Below are positions 31,746-39,941 of a stretch of DNA of 64,000 nucleotides, one piece after another. This DNA comes from Dyella sedimenti (GTDB lineage Bacteria > Pseudomonadota > Gammaproteobacteria > Xanthomonadales > Rhodanobacteraceae). The notes below the pieces were generated by a model. It was not told where the DNA came from, ran no database searches, and saw nothing but the letters and a program-made list of their open reading frames with translations. The stretch is taken from contig NZ_JAKWJO010000005.1 of assembly GCF_022760995.1 (NCBI RefSeq), positions 186,001 through 250,000 on the forward strand, in the 5' to 3' direction. The translations under genes and the position numbers were made by a program. Position 1 is the stretch's first letter; the number at the start of each line of letters is the position of its first letter.

Positions 31746-33650
31746 ATGGGCGCAGGGGCGAACTCCCGGGCGAGACAGTGGTGGCGGCGCACGTCGCTGA
31801 TGCAGCGGCTCGCGCTGGTCGCGATCGTGCCCACGCTGGTGACCGCCACCCTGCTGGTCGTGCTGCTCACCCAGCATCAGCTGGGTACGTTGCGCGGCAT
31901 GGCGCAGAACACTGCCGACGCCATCGCCACCCAGGCCGCCTCGGTCTCCACCGCGCCGCTGCGCGACATGCAGCGGCGCGAGCTGGTGCGCATCGCCGAA
32001 TCGATCAGCGACCTGCCCCACGTGGCGCGCGTGCAGATCCGCGCGGGCGACGGCGAGATCCTGGCTGACAACCTGGGCCGCAGCGGCGGCGGTAACGGCG
32101 ATACGCTCACCGTGGTGCGCAACGTGACCGATCCGGACCAGCCCGGCCATCCCTCGCTGGGCTCGGTGGTGGTGGATGTCAGCCTCAGCGATGCCGTCAC
32201 GGCCCAGCACGCCAGCCTGCGCAACGCGCTGCTGGCGCTGGTGCTGAGCCTGCTGGTCGCCGCGGTGATCGGCTGGCAGGCCGCGCGCTGGATCAGCGCC
32301 CCGCTGCGACGCCTGGTGGCCGCCGTGCACCAGCTCGGGCGCGGCGACCGCCATGTCGAGGTCGAGGTCACCGACCAGACCGAGATCGGCGAGCTGCAGC
32401 GCGGCTTCAACGCCGCCGCGCTGGCGCTGTTCGACGTGCAGCGCAGCATGGAGAAGGAGATCGAGCATGCCACCGTGGAGCTGGCGCGCAAGAATGCCGC
32501 GCTGGAGGCGGCCAGCGTCGCCAAGGCGCGCTTCCTCGCCGCCGCCTCGCACGACCTGCGCCAGCCGCTGTACGCGCTGACCCTGTTCTCCTCCTCGCTG
32601 GCCGAGGACGAGCGCGATCCCGTGCGGCTGGACCGCATCGCGCACATCCAGGAATGCGTGGAGGCGCTGGACCACCTGTTCAGCGAACTGCTGGACCTGT
32701 CGCGGTTGGAAACCGGCGCGATGCAGATCGAGATCAACGAATTCCCGCTCGACCAGGTCTTCCAGGAAGTGAGCCGCAACTTCCGCATGATCGCCGAGCA
32801 GCACGGCCTGCGCCTCATCATGCGCGCCACCGGCCTGTGGGTGCGCAGCGACCGCACCATGCTGGCGCGCATCCTCAACAACCTGGTCAGCAACGCGCTG
32901 CGCTACACCCAGCGGGGCGGCGTGCTGGTGGTCGCGCGCCGCCGGCAGGATGGCACGGTGCGCGTGGACGTATGGGATACCGGCAGCGGCATCGCCCCGG
33001 AACACCAGTCGCGCGTGTTCGACGAGTTCTACCGGGTGGAATGCCATGGCGGCAGCGAGCGCGACACCGGTCCCCGGCGTGGCCTGGGCCTGGGCCTGGC
33101 CACCGTGCAGCGCCTGGCCGAACTGCTGGACACCCAGGTGCAGCTCAGGTCCACCCTCGGGCGTGGCAGCGTGTTCAGCTTCCACCTGCCGGAAGTGCCG
33201 GCGCGCCCAGTGTTCCAGCCCGCCAGCGACGAGACCCCGCTGGATGTCTCGGGCATGCGCGTGCTGGTGATCGACGACGAACCGGCAATCCTCTCCGGCA
33301 TCCGCTACCTGCTGCGCAGTTGGGGCTGCGAGGTGGCGGTCGCCGAGGACCGCATCCAGGCCCTGCAGGCCACCGAGGAATGGCCGCTGCCGCCCGACAT
33401 CGTGATTTCCGACCTGCGGCTGCGCGACGGCGAGAGCGGGCTGGACGTGCTGGCCGCGGTGGAACAGCGCTACCTGCAGGATGGTCATCCGCCGTTCCCG
33501 CGCCTGCTGATCACCGGCGAGACGCGCAGCGACCGCCTCCGCGAAATCATGGCCGCGCGCATCCCGGTGCTCTACAAGCCGGTGTCGCCCGAGCAACTGC
33601 GCGAGGCCATGATGACGGCCTGGAGCACCGCCCGCGCCACGGTGGCCTGA
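31746..33650 (+). CDS. Hybrid sensor histidine kinase
   Basis: The 634-aa membrane kinase has TM1 at ~21-42, a periplasmic loop at ~43-158, TM2 at ~159-180 and a HAMP linker (WISAPLRRLVAAVHQLGRGD). A coiled region leads to the H-box ASHDLRQPLYALTLFSSSL with phospho-acceptor His269. The N-box (ILNNLVSNALRYT), G1 (DTGSGI) and G2 (RGLGLGLATVQRL) boxes are intact. A C-terminal receiver domain (LVIDDEPAILSGIRYLL) has phospho-acceptor Asp556. It ends 6 nt before the stop of the opposing TssL/TssM-like gene. The cognate output is likely the LuxR-type regulator at 35710. Confidence 0.94.
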   Translation: MGAGANSRARQWWRRTSLMQRLALVAIVPTLVTATLLVVLLTQHQLGTLRGMAQNTADAIATQAASVSTAPLRDMQRRELVRIAESISDLPHVARVQIRAGDGEILADNLGRSGGGNGDTLTVVRNVTDPDQPGHPSLGSVVVDVSLSDAVTAQHASLRNALLALVLSLLVAAVIGWQAARWISAPLRRLVAAVHQLGRGDRHVEVEVTDQTEIGELQRGFNAAALALFDVQRSMEKEIEHATVELARKNAALEAASVAKARFLAAASHDLRQPLYALTLFSSSLAEDERDPVRLDRIAHIQECVEALDHLFSELLDLSRLETGAMQIEINEFPLDQVFQEVSRNFRMIAEQHGLRLIMRATGLWVRSDRTMLARILNNLVSNALRYTQRGGVLVVARRRQDGTVRVDVWDTGSGIAPEHQSRVFDEFYRVECHGGSERDTGPRRGLGLGLATVQRLAELLDTQVQLRSTLGRGSVFSFHLPEVPARPVFQPASDETPLDVSGMRVLVIDDEPAILSGIRYLLRSWGCEVAVAEDRIQALQATEEWPLPPDIVISDLRLRDGESGLDVLAAVEQRYLQDGHPPFPRLLITGETRSDRLREIMAARIPVLYKPVSPEQLREAMMTAWSTARATVA

Positions 33651-33656
33651 GAGAGC

Positions 33657-35390
33657 CTATCCTTCCGGGGCAATGCGGCGCGCCAGCACACGGTCGGCGG
33701 GCAGGAAGCGCGCGAACAGGTCGTCGGCGAAATCGCCGCCCGGCGCCTGTGCCCGCGAGCCGCCGGTAACGTACAGCCCGCACCACGCCAGGCGCCGCCC
33801 GCCGCGCGCCTCGCCCGCACGCAACCGGTCCAGGAACGCATCCAGCCCGCGCTGCAGGCGCGGCAGCGACTGCAGCAGGGCGAAGAGTTCGCGGCGGCCA
33901 CGCGGCTGGCCCTGCACCGCCAGCGCCGCCAATGCGGCCGCGCGCATGCGCGGGATCACCATCTCGCCATGGACGTCCATGCGTCCCAACGCGTGATGCC
34001 CGCCGGGCGCGGCGCCGATGCGGCAACCCAGCGCGCGCCGGAACGCCGACGAGGGCAACGTCGTGCGGAACGTGGCGTAGCCGGGCAGCCCTTCCATGCC
34101 GGTGACCACGATGTAGAGAGGCAATTGCAGTTGCAGGCGGCGGGTAGCGGCATCGGCCATCGCATGCAGTCGGTCGGCGCACGCCTCGATCGACGGCGTG
34201 GTGCCCAGCAGGGTCTGCGCCGCGACGCACAGCACCATGCCGTCCGCCGGCAGCTTGCGGCGCTCGCGCGCCAGCTGCGCCAGGGCGTGCATCCAGGGCG
34301 ATTCGTCGTGGCGCGGGTCGCCCGGTTCACGCAACAGGCCCATGCCCGGCTCGATCGCCACCACGGCGCGGAAGACCCACCAGTACCAAGGCCGGGCGTC
34401 GCCCTGGCCCGGCGACGTGCGGGCGTGCGGCGCATGGGCGGCGGCCTGCAGCAGACCGCGGACCTCCGCCGGATCGTCGCCCAGGAAGATCAGCCAGGGA
34501 TGGCGCGACAACCGCCGCCATTCGCCGCGCCGCCGGAACGGATGCAGCAGCGCGCCGCGCAGGTGGCGCCCCGCATCGCGCAGCGTCGCCCACAGGTCGC
34601 CGATGCCGTAGCCGGCTTCGGTACTCACGGCCACGCGCGTATGCGCGCGCCTGACCACCTGCGCATGCCAGGCCAGCGCGCCGGCCCAGCCGAGCAGCGC
34701 GATGACGGTCACCGCCAGGCCCGCCAGGTACCAGGCCTGCGCCGGGGCGGCACTGCTGAATATCGGTCCCACGAAGGCCGCCAGCACCAGCCACACCACC
34801 AGCGTCGCCACCCTTTGCACCGCGCGCCGGCTGGCCCACGCCCCGGGCAGGCGCAGCAGGGGCGAGCCCGGCGCCAGGTAGGGCTGCGGCGTGATGGGAT
34901 CGCGCTGGAGCGATTGCAGGATGGCCGGCGCGGTCACGCTGGGGCGGCAATGCAGCGCCTTAATCCGCCCCAGCTCGCCGCCATCGCCACGCTCGTAGTA
35001 GTACTGGCCGGCAAAGCCCAGCAGCAGCGCCATGCCGAATACCTCGCGCACCTCGTCCGCGTCGCCGGGAAGCCCGGCCAGGTGATCGAAGAACTCGCTC
35101 GCCGCCTCCGATGTACGGAACAGGCGCTGCTGCAGCGGGTTGCCCTGGTTCTTCCAGCGGTCGTGCCGCATGACCACCTCGTCGAACCAGGCCACCGCGG
35201 CGAAGGCCGCCATCTCGACCTGGGGCAGCGGCTTGCCTTCGGCCAGCGATGCCGTGCGCGCCTCGACGACCATGCCGCTGGCCCGTGCCTGGAGCGGCGC
35301 GAGCGCCTCGAGCGGGGCGCCCGTGCGCGCCTGCTCATCGAGCTGCAGGCCGTAGGCGAATACGGGCGAGAAACATTCCAGCAGACGCAT
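33657..35390 (-). CDS. DotU/TssL - IcmF/TssM(N) fusion protein with degenerate nucleotide-binding motifs
   Basis: The product is 577 aa from the ATG at 35390; a GTG five codons upstream is the alternative. Residues ~1-150 read as a DotU/TssL cytoplasmic domain (AAVAWFDEVVMRHDRW, QQRLFRTSEAASEFFDHLA, ALLLGFAGQYYYERGDGGEL). Two transmembrane segments follow (~193-213, 219-242). The rest aligns by order of motifs with the N-terminal GTPase-like domain of IcmF/TssM. At the P-loop the protein has WLIFLGDDPAEVRG (299-312). DTAGR is replaced by VVAIEPGMG (343-351) and TKxD by VVTGMEGLPGY. The protein ends where TssM would continue, after GLYVTGG, so the large periplasmic part is missing. No other secretion gene is in the window. 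The fold assignment is inference from motif order. Confidence 0.7.
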   Translation of the reverse strand: MRLLECFSPVFAYGLQLDEQARTGAPLEALAPLQARASGMVVEARTASLAEGKPLPQVEMAAFAAVAWFDEVVMRHDRWKNQGNPLQQRLFRTSEAASEFFDHLAGLPGDADEVREVFGMALLLGFAGQYYYERGDGGELGRIKALHCRPSVTAPAILQSLQRDPITPQPYLAPGSPLLRLPGAWASRRAVQRVATLVVWLVLAAFVGPIFSSAAPAQAWYLAGLAVTVIALLGWAGALAWHAQVVRRAHTRVAVSTEAGYGIGDLWATLRDAGRHLRGALLHPFRRRGEWRRLSRHPWLIFLGDDPAEVRGLLQAAAHAPHARTSPGQGDARPWYWWVFRAVVAIEPGMGLLREPGDPRHDESPWMHALAQLARERRKLPADGMVLCVAAQTLLGTTPSIEACADRLHAMADAATRRLQLQLPLYIVVTGMEGLPGYATFRTTLPSSAFRRALGCRIGAAPGGHHALGRMDVHGEMVIPRMRAAALAALAVQGQPRGRRELFALLQSLPRLQRGLDAFLDRLRAGEARGGRRLAWCGLYVTGGSRAQAPGGDFADDLFARFLPADRVLARRIAPEG

Positions 35391-35709
35391 GGCGCCTAGA
35401 GCCACGCTGGACGATCAAGGCCATCCCTCGCCCGGGAACGGGCGATGCGCTTGTCTGCATGAGCTACCGCGGATGCCAAGTCCACCCCGTGCCACCATCG
35501 CCACCGCCCTGCCTCAAGCGCGGTCCCCATTGAGCGACTCTCCCATCGCAGTGGCGGGATTCTCCCGGCCATCCGCCCGGTCGGCCATATCACCTAGAGG
35601 CTAGGCCATTCGGGGGCTCCGCACGGTTGCCGCGCCGATGCGCCGGGGGTTATGTTGCATGAGCGGATGCGCGGCGATGGGAACGCCACGTGACGCCATG
35701 GGGAATGAC
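35391..35709. other. Divergent intergenic region with dyad
   Basis: This 319-nt region lies between the TssL/TssM-like gene and the response regulator and must carry both promoters. It holds a small dyad CCTAG-AGG-CTAGG (35593-35605) about 105 nt before the regulator ATG. This runs into TAGGCCATTCG (35602-35612), an 11-mer repeated at 38270-38280 upstream of the second kinase gene. These are possible regulator sites. No gene is seen. Confidence 0.45.
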
Positions 35710-36390
35710 ATGCGCATACTGATCGCGGACGACCACCGGCTGATCGTCGAAGGGGTCAAGCTCAAGCTGGGCGAACTGGGCCCCGACACCGAGTTTGTCG
35801 TTGCCATGGACAAGGCGGAACTGCGCGAGACGATCCACTCGCCGGAGGCGGCCGCGCTGTCGCTGGCGCTGATCGACCTGGCCATGCCCGGCGCGCAGGG
35901 CAACGAGCACCTGACCGAGATGATCGAACAGCTGCCGCACGTGCCGCTGATCGTACTCTCCGGCTCGGAGGATCCCTCGCTGATGAAAAGCCTGCTCGCC
36001 ATGGGCGTGCAGGGCTTCATTCCCAAGGCCTATTCGCCCGACGTGATGCTCTCGGCGGTGCGGCTGGTGCTGTCCGGCGGCGTCTACGTGCCGCCCCTGC
36101 TGCTGCAGGAGCATGTCGATGGCGCCGGCACCACGCCGGCTTCGCCGGCTGCCTCGGCACAGTCGGCGTTCTCCGATTCGCTGGAAGAACGCCTGCGCAA
36201 GCTGCTCACCGAGCGCCAGATCGACGTGCTGCGCCTGCTTTCGCAGGGCAAGCCGAACAAGCTGATCGCCCGTGACCTGGGCATCAGCGAGGGCACCGTG
36301 AAGATCCACCTCGCCGCCATCTTCCGCGCGCTCAACGTGCGCAACCGGGTCGAGGCGGTGGTGGCTTCGCGGCGCATCAGCGGGTTGTAG
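35710..36390 (+). CDS. LuxR/NarL-family response regulator
   Basis: The 226-aa product has an N-terminal receiver domain (MRILIADDHRLIVEGVKLKL, acceptor Asp56 in LIDLAMPG, conserved Lys in FIPKAYS) and a C-terminal LuxR helix-turn-helix (LTERQIDVLRLLSQGKPNKL, then IARDLGISEGTVKIHLAAIF). It binds DNA when phosphorylated. The ATG at 35710 has GGGGA 5 nt upstream. It lies between two kinases that share an H-box type, and 158 nt before the PhnD-like binding protein. Confidence 0.94.
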   Translation: MRILIADDHRLIVEGVKLKLGELGPDTEFVVAMDKAELRETIHSPEAAALSLALIDLAMPGAQGNEHLTEMIEQLPHVPLIVLSGSEDPSLMKSLLAMGVQGFIPKAYSPDVMLSAVRLVLSGGVYVPPLLLQEHVDGAGTTPASPAASAQSAFSDSLEERLRKLLTERQIDVLRLLSQGKPNKLIARDLGISEGTVKIHLAAIFRALNVRNRVEAVVASRRISGL

Positions 36391-36547
36391 GGCGCAAACG
36401 GCGTCGGGTGCGCCATGCGGGGGCGTGAACAGGCGCCAGGGCTTTCACCTGCGCCCCACATGGGCGGCGTATGCTGCCCCGGCCTGGGCGAGGCCCCCGA
36501 TGGCCGCGCGCCCAGCCACTTCCGACGGCCGACCAGGAGATGCCGCG

Positions 36548-37600
36548 GTGGCGAGGGGACCGAGTTCACGCCGTGGGTGCCGGCATGCCTGGCCGAGGAT
36601 GGCATGGCTGACGCTGGCCTGCCTGCTGTGCTGCGCCCTGCCGGCGCTGGCGGAGGCACCGCCACGCGCCGACACGCATATCAGCGCGCTGACCTTCGGC
36701 ATCCTGCCGATCGGCGGCCCGTCCGAATCGCTGGAAGCCTGGCGTCCCATGCTGGACGACCTCAGCCGCACCCTGCAACTGCCGATACGCAGCCTGTCGG
36801 TGAGCACCTATGAGGGCCTGGCCCAGGCGATGACCGAGGAACGCGTCGATTTCGCCTTCGTCTCCGGGCGGCTCGCGCTCGACGCGGTCACCCGCGACCA
36901 CATGCAGGTCATCGCCCAGCTCACGCGCACCAACGGTTCGCGCGGCTATTACTCGGTGCTGCTGGTCGCCAGGGACTCGCCACTGCGGACCATCGACGAC
37001 CTGTTCCGGCAACCCGGCAAGCTGCGTTACGCGCGCGGCGAAGTACTGTCGGTTTCCGGCTATCTGGTGCCCGAGACGCAGCTGTTCGCCAACCGCCGCC
37101 TCGACTCGGACACCTTCTTCGCCAACGTCACCGTGGACAACCACCAGAACAACGCGTTGGCCGTGGCCAACGACGAGGTGGACGTGGCCACCAACAACAC
37201 CGCCGACATGGAACGCTTCGCCAAGCGCTTTCCCGACCAGTACGCGCGGCTGCGCGTGCTGTGGACCTCCAGCCTGATTCCCCATGCGGTGGTGGTGATC
37301 CGCACCGACCTGCCGTCCGAGCTGCGCCGGCGGGTGGCCGCGGCGCTCACCGCCTACGGCAAGGGAAAGAATGCCGCGGCCGAGCTGGCCAAGCTGCAGC
37401 TGATCCACGACATCAGCGGCTTCGCGCCGGCCGGCAACGAAACCCTGGTGCCGTTCGCGGACATCGAGTTCAACCTCGACCGGCGCCGTGCCTACAGCGC
37501 CCAATGGGTGAGCGACGCGGCCATGCAGGCGCGCCTGCACAAGATCGACGCCGAGCACGAAGCGCTGGTCCGCCAGCTGATGGCGCCGCCGTCGCCGTGA
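36548..37600 (+). CDS. PhnD/SsuA-type periplasmic substrate-binding protein
   Basis: The 350-aa product has a signal peptide with an Arg-rich n-region (MAWLTLACLLCCALPALAEA core). The fold is that of phosphonate/phosphite-type solute-binding proteins: LTFGILPIGGPSESLEAWRP, MTEERVDFAFVSGRLALDA and LPETQ-like strands, with NNTADMERF. The GTG at 36548 is preceded by AGGAG at 8 nt. The ATG at 36599 (M18) is the alternative and would shorten the n-region. No ABC permease or ATPase gene is nearby, so it is more likely a ligand sensor for a kinase than part of an importer. Confidence 0.85.
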   Translation: MARGPSSRRGCRHAWPRMAWLTLACLLCCALPALAEAPPRADTHISALTFGILPIGGPSESLEAWRPMLDDLSRTLQLPIRSLSVSTYEGLAQAMTEERVDFAFVSGRLALDAVTRDHMQVIAQLTRTNGSRGYYSVLLVARDSPLRTIDDLFRQPGKLRYARGEVLSVSGYLVPETQLFANRRLDSDTFFANVTVDNHQNNALAVANDEVDVATNNTADMERFAKRFPDQYARLRVLWTSSLIPHAVVVIRTDLPSELRRRVAAALTAYGKGKNAAAELAKLQLIHDISGFAPAGNETLVPFADIEFNLDRRRAYSAQWVSDAAMQARLHKIDAEHEALVRQLMAPPSP

Positions 37601-38510: not shown

Positions 38511-39941
38511 ATGGAACCACGCCCGCACCTGCTGCCCCGCCTGTTCATCGATGTCGTCCTGCCCAGCGCGATCGCCGCGCTGGCGCTGGTGCTCGCGCTG
38601 TGCGTACAGCAGACGCACCACCTGGCCGAGCGCACCGATGCCGCGATTGCGCTGCGCCTGGAACGCCTCGCCGGCGAACTGGGCAGCCAGAGCCAGGCAC
38701 TGCCCCAGGCCACGCTGGACCGCGCCCTGCGCGACGGACAGGAGGACCAGTTGGTACGGGTGGAGCTGCACCGCCCGGACGGCAGCCTGTGGAGCAGCGG
38801 GGCGCCGGTCGCCGAGGGCGGCGCCATCTACCGCAGCGAGCTGCGCGACGCCGGCCAGGCCGCCTCGTGGCTGAGCATGCAGGTGGACATCCGTCCCCTG
38901 CGCCGCGCGCAGGGCATGGTCTGGTTGCTGGGCAGCCTGTGCGCCATGGGCATCGTCCTGCTCACCTGGCTGGCCAGGGCCACCCTGCGCCACCGGGTGA
39001 TGGAACCGCTGGCTCAGGTGCGCGAAGCACTGCACGAACTGGTCAACGCCCGCCGTCCCACCTTGGAGATAGGCGCGACCAGCGCGGAATTCGACGACCT
39101 CCAGCTGACGCTGCAGCGCCTGACCGAACTGCAGGACGAGCAGCGCCGCGACTGGAGCGCCCTGCAGCACGACAACGCCGTGGAGGCGCTCGACCGCCTG
39201 CGCCAGAGCCAGGCGGCCACGCGCAGCAAATCCCAGTTCATTGCCCTGGTCAGCCATCACTTCCGGCAGCCGCTGCAGGCGCTCGAGCTGTTCGCCGGAG
39301 GCCTGGACGGCGATGGCGAGCGGCGTCCGCTGTTTGACCAGATGCGCGCCAGCATCGCCGCCATGACCCGCCTGCTGGACGCGCTGCTGGAAATCTCCCG
39401 GCTCGACGCCGGGGTCATCGCGGTGAAGCCGGCGGGCTTCACCGCCGCCGAACTGTTCATGCGCGACCGCACCTCGCTCAACCACGAGGCGGCGCAGCAG
39501 CAGGTCACCCTGGCCTGGCGTGGCAGCCACCACCGCCTGCACGGCGACGCCGACGTGGCCGCCCAGTTGCTCTACCAACTGGCCAGCAATGCCATCGCCA
39601 GCGCGCCGCACGGACGCGTGCTGATCGCCGCGCGCCGACGCGGCCAGGCCGTGCGCATCGAAGTGCGCGACAATGGGCCGGGCATTGCGGTGATCCACCA
39701 GCAGCGCATCTTCGAGGAGTTCGTGCAATTGCAGACCGGCGAAAGCGAGCGGCGCAACGGCTACGGCCTGGGCCTGGCCATCGCCGAGCGGCTGGCCCGG
39801 CTGCTGGGCACCCGCATCGGCCTGCGCTCCGAACCCGGGCGCGGCAGCACGTTCTGGTTCGATCTGCCGCACCTGCCGGTCATGGAAATCCATTCCACCC
39901 CGCGCAGCCGTTCCTCGGCCACCTGGCGACAGGCAAGCTGA
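38511..39941 (+). CDS. Sensor histidine kinase
   Basis: The 476-aa product has TM1 at ~15-33 (VLPSAIAALALVLALCV), a periplasmic domain at ~34-125, TM2 at ~137-158 and a HAMP-like linker. The H-box VSHHFRQPLQALELFAGGL has the acceptor His249. It continues with the N-box region LLYQLASNAIASA, G1 (DNGPGI) and G2 (NGYGLGLAIAERLARLLG). There is no receiver domain. The H-box belongs to the same RQPL-type as that of the hybrid kinase at 31746. It is a candidate partner of the PhnD-like protein and of the LuxR-type regulator. Confidence 0.92.
   Translation: MEPRPHLLPRLFIDVVLPSAIAALALVLALCVQQTHHLAERTDAAIALRLERLAGELGSQSQALPQATLDRALRDGQEDQLVRVELHRPDGSLWSSGAPVAEGGAIYRSELRDAGQAASWLSMQVDIRPLRRAQGMVWLLGSLCAMGIVLLTWLARATLRHRVMEPLAQVREALHELVNARRPTLEIGATSAEFDDLQLTLQRLTELQDEQRRDWSALQHDNAVEALDRLRQSQAATRSKSQFIALVSHHFRQPLQALELFAGGLDGDGERRPLFDQMRASIAAMTRLLDALLEISRLDAGVIAVKPAGFTAAELFMRDRTSLNHEAAQQQVTLAWRGSHHRLHGDADVAAQLLYQLASNAIASAPHGRVLIAARRRGQAVRIEVRDNGPGIAVIHQQRIFEEFVQLQTGESERRNGYGLGLAIAERLARLLGTRIGLRSEPGRGSTFWFDLPHLPVMEIHSTPRSRSSATWRQAS

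What the first reader, a model, noticed from the sequence alone, without database searches (positions are those of the whole stretch)
33657..35390. Stand-alone TssL-TssM(N) fusion with dead nucleotide site
The protein joins a DotU/TssL-like domain, two membrane helices and the N-terminal IcmF/TssM GTPase-like domain in one 577-aa chain, then stops before the periplasmic part. Each nucleotide-binding motif position carries a non-consensus sequence (GDDPAEVRG for the P-loop, VAIEPGMG for DTAGR, TGMEGL for TKxD). No tss genes flank it. It could be a repurposed membrane scaffold or regulator rather than part of a secretion machine.
Basis: partly seen in the sequence, partly recalled or inferred. 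Interest (0 to 1): 0.78.

Follow-up and report, generated by a model that had tools for sequence, protein, structure and literature searches.

The report
Leftover secretion-machine gene kept by Dyella
One group of soil bacteria appears to have lost a molecular weapon but kept two of its membrane-anchor pieces welded into a single protein that natural selection still protects, which suggests the fragment has found a job of its own.

Summary
The minus-strand gene 33657-35390 (577 aa) joins a DotU/TssL cytoplasmic domain, a two-helix membrane hairpin and the TssM/IcmF cytoplasmic GTPase-like domain, and ends just before TssM's third membrane helix. Its genome (a Dyella) has no TssC, no TssK, no other DotU and no other IcmF-N.

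By origin it is a type VI secretion (T6SS) relic: in Dyella tabacisoli, placed in another genus by GTDB, a T6SS cluster lies at the same place, between the same histidine kinase and response regulator, with separate tssL and tssM that are the fusion's closest relatives found.

All 20 genus genomes held carry the fusion, unbroken and in the same place; 14 of them lack both TssC and TssK. The tree gives one origin; dN/dS is 0.07-0.16 in the five closest pairs.

The 'dead' nucleotide site is real but inherited: the five nearest T6SS TssMs lack the same motifs.

Best reading: an in-place T6SS deletion left a single-chain inner-membrane platform that was then exapted. Its present job is not shown; a role with the flanking two-component system is plausible and untested. 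New variant of a known kind.

The parts
33657..35390 (-). TssL-TssM(N) fusion gene, 577 aa
   Evidence: ORF; start conserved 20 of 20; Pfam DotU and IcmF-related_N
34836..35390 (-). DotU/TssL-like cytoplasmic domain, about aa 1-185
   Evidence: Pfam; 46% identity to D. tabacisoli TssL; TssL fold, Z 17.8
34755..34811 (-). first membrane helix, aa 194-212 (the TssL/TssM junction lies near here; not pinned to the residue)
   Evidence: hydropathy; both TssL and TssM alignments reach this part
34671..34727 (-). second membrane helix, aa 222-240, from TssM
   Evidence: hydropathy; TssM alignment
33660..34523 (-). TssM/IcmF GTPase-like cytoplasmic domain, about aa 290-577, without nucleotide motifs
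   Evidence: Pfam; small-GTPase fold, Z 11-12.5; motif columns
31746..33650 (+). HK1, hybrid histidine kinase with HAMP and receiver domains
   Evidence: Pfam; beside the fusion in 20 of 20 and beside the T6SS in D. tabacisoli and G046
35710..36390 (+). RR, LuxR-type response regulator
   Evidence: Pfam; synteny; start read from sequence
36515..37600 (+). PhnD-like periplasmic binding protein
   Evidence: Pfam; synteny
38511..39941 (+). HK2, second histidine kinase
   Evidence: Pfam; synteny
35583..35612 (.). conserved element between fusion and RR, possible operator
35531..35565 (-). leader stretch that aligns with DNA on the T6SS side in D. tabacisoli, G046 and Rhodanobacter sp. L36
   Evidence: alignment, read by eye

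Best explanation
A T6SS cluster sat between HK1 and RR in an ancestor of Dyella and was removed in place. What is left of it here is an in-frame fusion of tssL (cytoplasmic domain) with tssM (membrane hairpin and cytoplasmic GTPase-like domain); the TssL periplasmic part and TssM from its third helix onward are gone [origin: strongly supported by comparison]. The product should be an inner-membrane protein with both soluble domains in the cytoplasm: the baseplate-facing half of the T6SS membrane complex as one chain, without the trans-envelope half [domains shown; topology inferred]. It is kept by selection in genomes without TssC and TssK, so it has a function outside a T6SS [strongly supported]. 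Most likely mechanism [inferred]: a nucleotide-independent inner-membrane docking platform that holds or modulates a cytoplasmic partner. Candidate partners are the flanking kinases and regulator, which bracketed the T6SS and next to which the gene still lies, sharing a conserved divergent control region with RR; I put that link at about 0.3. The confidence below is for 'exapted relic of an in-place T6SS deletion'.
For: Same place: HK1 - T6SS(-) - RR - PhnD in D. tabacisoli (G021) and G046; HK1 - fusion(-) - RR - PhnD - DUF3617 - HK2 in 20 of 20 genus genomes. The separate tssL and tssM there are adjacent, in the fusion's order and strand, and align at 46% and 36%. Tree: one branch for the 20 fusions (99/100), joined to the five TssMs of this T6SS type (100/100) and apart from the other Dyella T6SS TssMs. 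Upstream DNA on the T6SS side is retained. Selection: 0 stops in the fusion frame in 20 of 20; changes mostly at codon position 3; dN/dS 0.066-0.164 for the five closest pairs. TssC absent in 14 of 20, TssK in 15 of 20. Mostly vertical descent: 13 of 17 splits shared with neighbouring genes. Of 45 TssL-domain positions invariant both in the 20 fusions and in 5 T6SS relatives, 43 carry the same residue.
Against: No expression, protein or phenotype data. The fusion changes faster than its neighbours (median dN/dS 0.27 against 0.11 for HK1 and RR), which also fits a loosely constrained relic. HK1 and RR lie side by side with neither fusion nor T6SS between them in 12 of the 15 outside-genus genomes where both were found, so they do not need it. 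The fusion clade sits beside all five T6SS relatives, not inside them, and the tree tool warned of long branches, so the donor cluster is not pinned down. The AF2 model is moderate (mean pLDDT 64.7) and Foldseek alone had no hit at E 0.001 or less.
Confidence: 0.8

Rival explanations
1. Exapted, but with a partner outside this locus: the platform serves another envelope or cell-cycle process, and the kinase and regulator are only old neighbours. (This rivals the mechanism step, not the origin, and lies inside the 0.8 above.)
For: HK1 and RR occur without the fusion in other genera; no gene at the locus is specific to genomes that have the fusion among those compared.
Against: Position between HK1 and RR is kept in 20 of 20, and the shared control region has a conserved element.
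Confidence: 0.5
2. A slowly decaying relic without a function of its own; the apparent constraint is what is left of the past.
For: Faster change than its neighbours: median dN/dS 0.27 over the 184 of 190 pairs with dS under 1.5.
Against: The closest, most recent pairs show 0.066-0.164; no stop in its frame in 20 of 20 genomes.
Confidence: 0.08
3. It acts on other T6SSs in trans, as an assembly helper or a dominant inhibitor.
For: Six of 20 genus genomes carry a TssC, hence probably another T6SS.
Against: Fourteen of 20 have neither TssC nor TssK yet keep it; the other Dyella TssMs are far away in the tree.
Confidence: 0.07
4. The fusion arose elsewhere and entered the HK1-RR interval ready-made.
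For: Its clade is sister to, not nested in, the T6SS TssMs; HK1-RR without T6SS is the commoner arrangement in the relatives.
Against: Orientation, position and upstream DNA match the T6SS-bearing locus; no fusion was found outside the genus.
Confidence: 0.05

Closest known systems
TssL (DotU family, PF09850 / TIGR03349)
   Same: N-terminal cytoplasmic domain by sequence and fold; 46% identity to D. tabacisoli TssL; Z 17.8, rmsd 3.5, 149 aligned to TssL 6y4r
   Different: No periplasmic part; joined to TssM; most genomes with it lack TssC and TssK
TssM/IcmF N-terminal region (PF14331 / TIGR03348)
   Same: Membrane hairpin and GTPase-like domain; 36% identity to D. tabacisoli TssM
   Different: No third helix and no periplasmic region; no nucleotide motifs, a lack shared with its five nearest T6SS relatives
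T6SS cluster of Dyella tabacisoli L4-6 at the same locus
   Same: Position, orientation, flanking HK1, RR, PhnD and HK2; tssL next to tssM
   Different: tssE, hcp, tssC, tssB, tssA, tssM, tssL, tssK, tssF, tssG, clpV and vgrG are there; no TssJ among the 14 proteins scanned
IcmF3 (PA2361) of Pseudomonas aeruginosa
   Same: An IcmF without Walker A whose deletion has pleiotropic effects (PMC4589678, abstract and section 20)
   Different: An IcmF counted with the T6SSs of that species (abstract); no TssL fusion is mentioned in the parts I saw

Membership tests
DotU/TssL | DotU cytoplasmic domain | tested here: met
   Pfam 73.6 bits, cut-off 27; TssL fold; but TIGR03349 56 bits, under its cut-off of 89.95
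DotU/TssL | Works with the other components of a T6SS or T4BSS | tested here: not met
   No TssC, TssK or separate IcmF in this genome; T4BSS parts other than DotU and IcmF-N not searched
TssM/IcmF | IcmF-related N-terminal domain | tested here: met
   PF14331 88.8 bits, cut-off 25
TssM/IcmF | Third membrane helix and periplasmic region | tested here: not met
   Alignment ends at TssM residue 391; TssM's third helix is near 402-420; TIGR03348 78.3 bits, cut-off 388
TssM/IcmF | Walker/GTPase motifs (in many members, not all) | tested here: not met
   Absent here and in 5 of 5 nearest T6SS TssMs; P-loop present in 14 of 14 other TssM rows aligned
Type VI secretion system | Sheath and baseplate genes in the genome | tested here: not met
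   TssC and TssK absent; Hcp, VgrG, ClpV not searched genome-wide
Two-component system partner | Interaction with HK1, HK2 or RR | not testable with these tools
   Only position and shared control region

The most novel reading that the evidence does not exclude
The cytoplasmic docking platform of a T6SS membrane complex was cut out of the machine, fused into one chain and domesticated as a membrane-bound signalling part of the very two-component system that once bracketed the weapon: the base of a secretion machine turned signal relay.
Probability: 0.27. Interest if true: 0.82.

Novelty: new variant of a known kind. Interest (0 to 1): 0.62.

Why it matters
T6SS parts are usually thought useful only as a machine. 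Here a genus appears to have kept one welded fragment at the ancestral site after the weapon was lost. Related genomes show the locus without the T6SS, with it, and with only the fusion. That makes a concrete test case for what the TssL/TssM cytoplasmic platform can do without baseplate and trans-envelope parts, and whether TssMs without nucleotide motifs have a signalling role.

Tried and rejected
Fusion as an ordinary T6SS gene: rejected, no TssC or TssK in the genome. Dead nucleotide site as a mark of repurposing: rejected, ancestral. A 44-aa ORF ending 5 nt before the fusion ATG in the window as a leader gene: its sequence and frame are not kept across the 20. The antisense ORF (476 aa, 33969-35399 on +) as the constrained frame: rejected; of the five other frames only one (minus frame 0) is free of stops in any species, in 4 of 20. 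G028's 2.8-kb HK1-RR gap as a second T6SS relic: no relic seen; the main ORF reads by eye like a cation antiporter. RR35 of Xanthomonas oryzae (PMC7698356, passages): a CheY-type regulator, not this one.

Phages, viral contigs and metagenomes were not searched.

Fold search: Foldseek alone had no hit at E 0.001 or less, the best being TssL 3u66 at 6.1e-3; the VIA re-alignment gave the Z values. A chance-level PDB sequence hit (9uwz, E 0.45) was set aside.

Literature: the phrase search for a TssL-TssM or DotU-IcmF fusion gave 0 papers. Wider searches listed 15 of 99, 15 of 32, 15 of 16, 17 of 17, 2 of 2 and 12 of 15 papers; I saw no such fusion in the titles and abstract starts. Opened as passages only: PMC6653060, PMC7698356, PMC2660368, PMC3213119, PMC3953482, PMC4604203, PMC8508121. 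PMC4589678: abstract, outline, section 20 (72, 73).

Left out of counts: L025 gave no TssM row at the threshold used and is not in the tree or motif comparison; G056 has HK1 but no RR at the threshold and is not among the 15; the neighbour-gene dN/dS for queE rests on 19 of 20.

Full report
WHAT IS THERE. The minus-strand ORF 33657-35390 encodes 577 aa from an ATG conserved in all 20 genus genomes held. Pfam finds DotU (E 2.3e-20) and IcmF-related_N (E 4.7e-25), both above cut-off. NCBIfam's TssM and DotU models also match, but under their cut-offs. Hydropathy gives two helices, 194-212 and 222-240. An AF2 model from the 20-row alignment A1 has mean pLDDT 64.7 and pTM 0.62. In the VIA re-alignment its N-terminal part matches TssL 6y4r (Z 17.8, rmsd 3.5, 149 aligned, model 1-157), and its C-terminal part matches small GTPases (best Z 12.5, rmsd 3.3, 160 aligned, model 296-573). 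Plain Foldseek had no hit at E 0.001 or less. By profile, PDB relatives are TssL 3u66 (E 4.8e-9) and 6y4r (E 1.6e-7).

WHERE IT COMES FROM. The genome (4.31 Mb, 22 contigs, rated 100% complete) has one IcmF-N match and one DotU match, both this gene, and no TssC; TssK is absent too. The 19 other genomes held for the genus carry the fusion over its whole length at 56-67% identity. In 20 of 20 the order is HK1(+), fusion(-), RR(+), PhnD(+), DUF3617(-), HK2(+). RR, PhnD, tssF, tssG, clpV and vgrG follow on plus, with HK2 further on (clpV named from its Clp and AAA domains, the regulator by eye). G046 is arranged alike as far as its contig goes. The tssL and tssM there are adjacent, in the order and strand of the fusion, and align to it at 46% (fusion 2-215) and 36% (fusion 194-570 to TssM 15-391). 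The third helix of that TssM lies near 402-420, so the fusion stops about ten residues short of it. In Rhodanobacter sp. L36 and Lysobacter sp. ISL-50, HK1 relatives (73% and 52%) lie on the same contig, a few kb from such a T6SS.

THE SITE WITHOUT A T6SS. Fifteen genomes outside the genus gave both HK1 and RR at the thresholds used. In 12 the two matches lie 87-216 bp apart, in 2 the T6SS lies between them (G021, G046), and in 1 (G028) there is a 2.8-kb insert in which I saw no T6SS relic. So the locus is seen without the T6SS, with it, and with only the fusion.

ONE ORIGIN, MOSTLY VERTICAL DESCENT. A maximum-likelihood tree of 39 TssM N-terminal regions puts the 20 fusions on one branch (99/100). 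They join the five TssMs of this T6SS type (100/100), away from seven TssMs of other T6SSs in Dyella and seven of other relatives. Cautions: the tool flagged long branches meeting, and the fusion clade is sister to all five, not nested in them. The fusion tree shares 13 of 17 splits with a tree of five neighbouring genes; 3 of its 15 well-supported splits are not shared.

DEAD SITE. The five T6SS TssMs of this type lack them as well, while 14 of 14 other TssM rows keep a P-loop. The lack is therefore ancestral. TssMs without Walker A are known: IcmF3 of P. aeruginosa, whose deletion has pleiotropic effects (PMC4589678, abstract and section 20). In A. tumefaciens the ATPase cycle of TssM is described as important for Hcp recruitment (PMC3953482, passages).

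SELECTION. The fusion frame has no stop in 20 of 20. Of the other five frames one is stop-free in 4 of 20 species and four in none. The five closest pairs have dN/dS 0.066-0.164 at pS 0.28-0.41, and in the seven pairs looked at most differences fall at codon position 3. By part (TssL, membrane, GTPase-like) the same five pairs give 15 values: 14 lie at 0.033-0.185, one (membrane part, L048/L049) is 0.248. Over the 184 of 190 pairs with dS under 1.5 the median is 0.27, against 0.11 (HK1), 0.11 (RR), 0.14 (PhnD), 0.16 (HK2) and 0.23 (DUF3617). The gene is thus constrained, less so than its neighbours. TssC is absent in 14 of 20 genus genomes and TssK in 15 of 20; G005, a fragmented assembly, has TssC but no TssK match.

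CONTROL REGION. Fusion and RR are divergent, 319 bp apart in the window; the gap is 301-585 bp across the 20. A 30-bp element (35583-35612) is recognisable in all 20, in four T6SS relatives and more weakly in ten other genomes without the T6SS there. Its 28-bp consensus, with up to 2 mismatches, occurs once per genome in 20 of 20, at this place, and the reversed-pattern control gives none. The consensus was made from these loci, so the telling part is the absence of other copies. Next to it, a leader stretch aligns by eye with DNA on the T6SS side in D. tabacisoli, G046 and Rhodanobacter sp. L36, which fits inheritance in place.

HOW IT MAY WORK. What is kept is the cytoplasmic half of the TssL-TssM pair plus a membrane hairpin. 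In the T6SS that half faces the baseplate; for instance TssG co-precipitates with the TssM cytoplasmic domain (PMC4604203, one passage). Of 45 TssL-domain positions invariant in both groups, 43 carry the same residue in fusions and T6SS relatives, and 45 of 53 in the GTPase-like part. The fold and perhaps some old contacts persist. I infer a nucleotide-independent inner-membrane docking platform. A link to HK1, HK2 or RR rests on position and the shared control region alone, and is weakened by the kinase and regulator existing without the fusion in other genera.

NOVELTY. I found no TssL-TssM or DotU-IcmF fusion in the searches of the held open-access library (most subscription papers are not in it). 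I rate it a new variant of a known kind.

Noticed in passing
window 35583-35612: A 30-bp element in front of the response regulator; its consensus is found once per genome in 20 of 20 Dyella genomes and recurs in related genera. It looks like a dedicated operator of the HK1/RR system.
   Followed up: partly
L052, L053, L054 (D. tabacisoli, G021:C11 about 105085-135730): A T6SS cluster with no TssJ among the 14 proteins scanned, a TraB/GumN-like gene beside tssK and its own kinase and regulator; its TssM matches the TssM model only over the first 369 residues.
   Followed up: partly
window 36515-37600 and 38511-39941: A PhnD-like periplasmic binding protein lies between a response regulator and a second histidine kinase; I noticed no ABC transporter genes next to it, so it may be a sensor part rather than an importer part.
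   Followed up: no
L100-L106 (G002, G005, G011, G016, G018, G019): Six of 20 Dyella genomes carry TssC and other TssMs (7 seen) that keep the P-loop and fall in two separate groups of the tree.
   Followed up: partly
window 33650-33657: HK1 and the fusion converge with 6 bp between their ends here; in G012, G014 and G019 about 0.3-1 kb lies between them, so the tight spacing is not universal.
   Followed up: no
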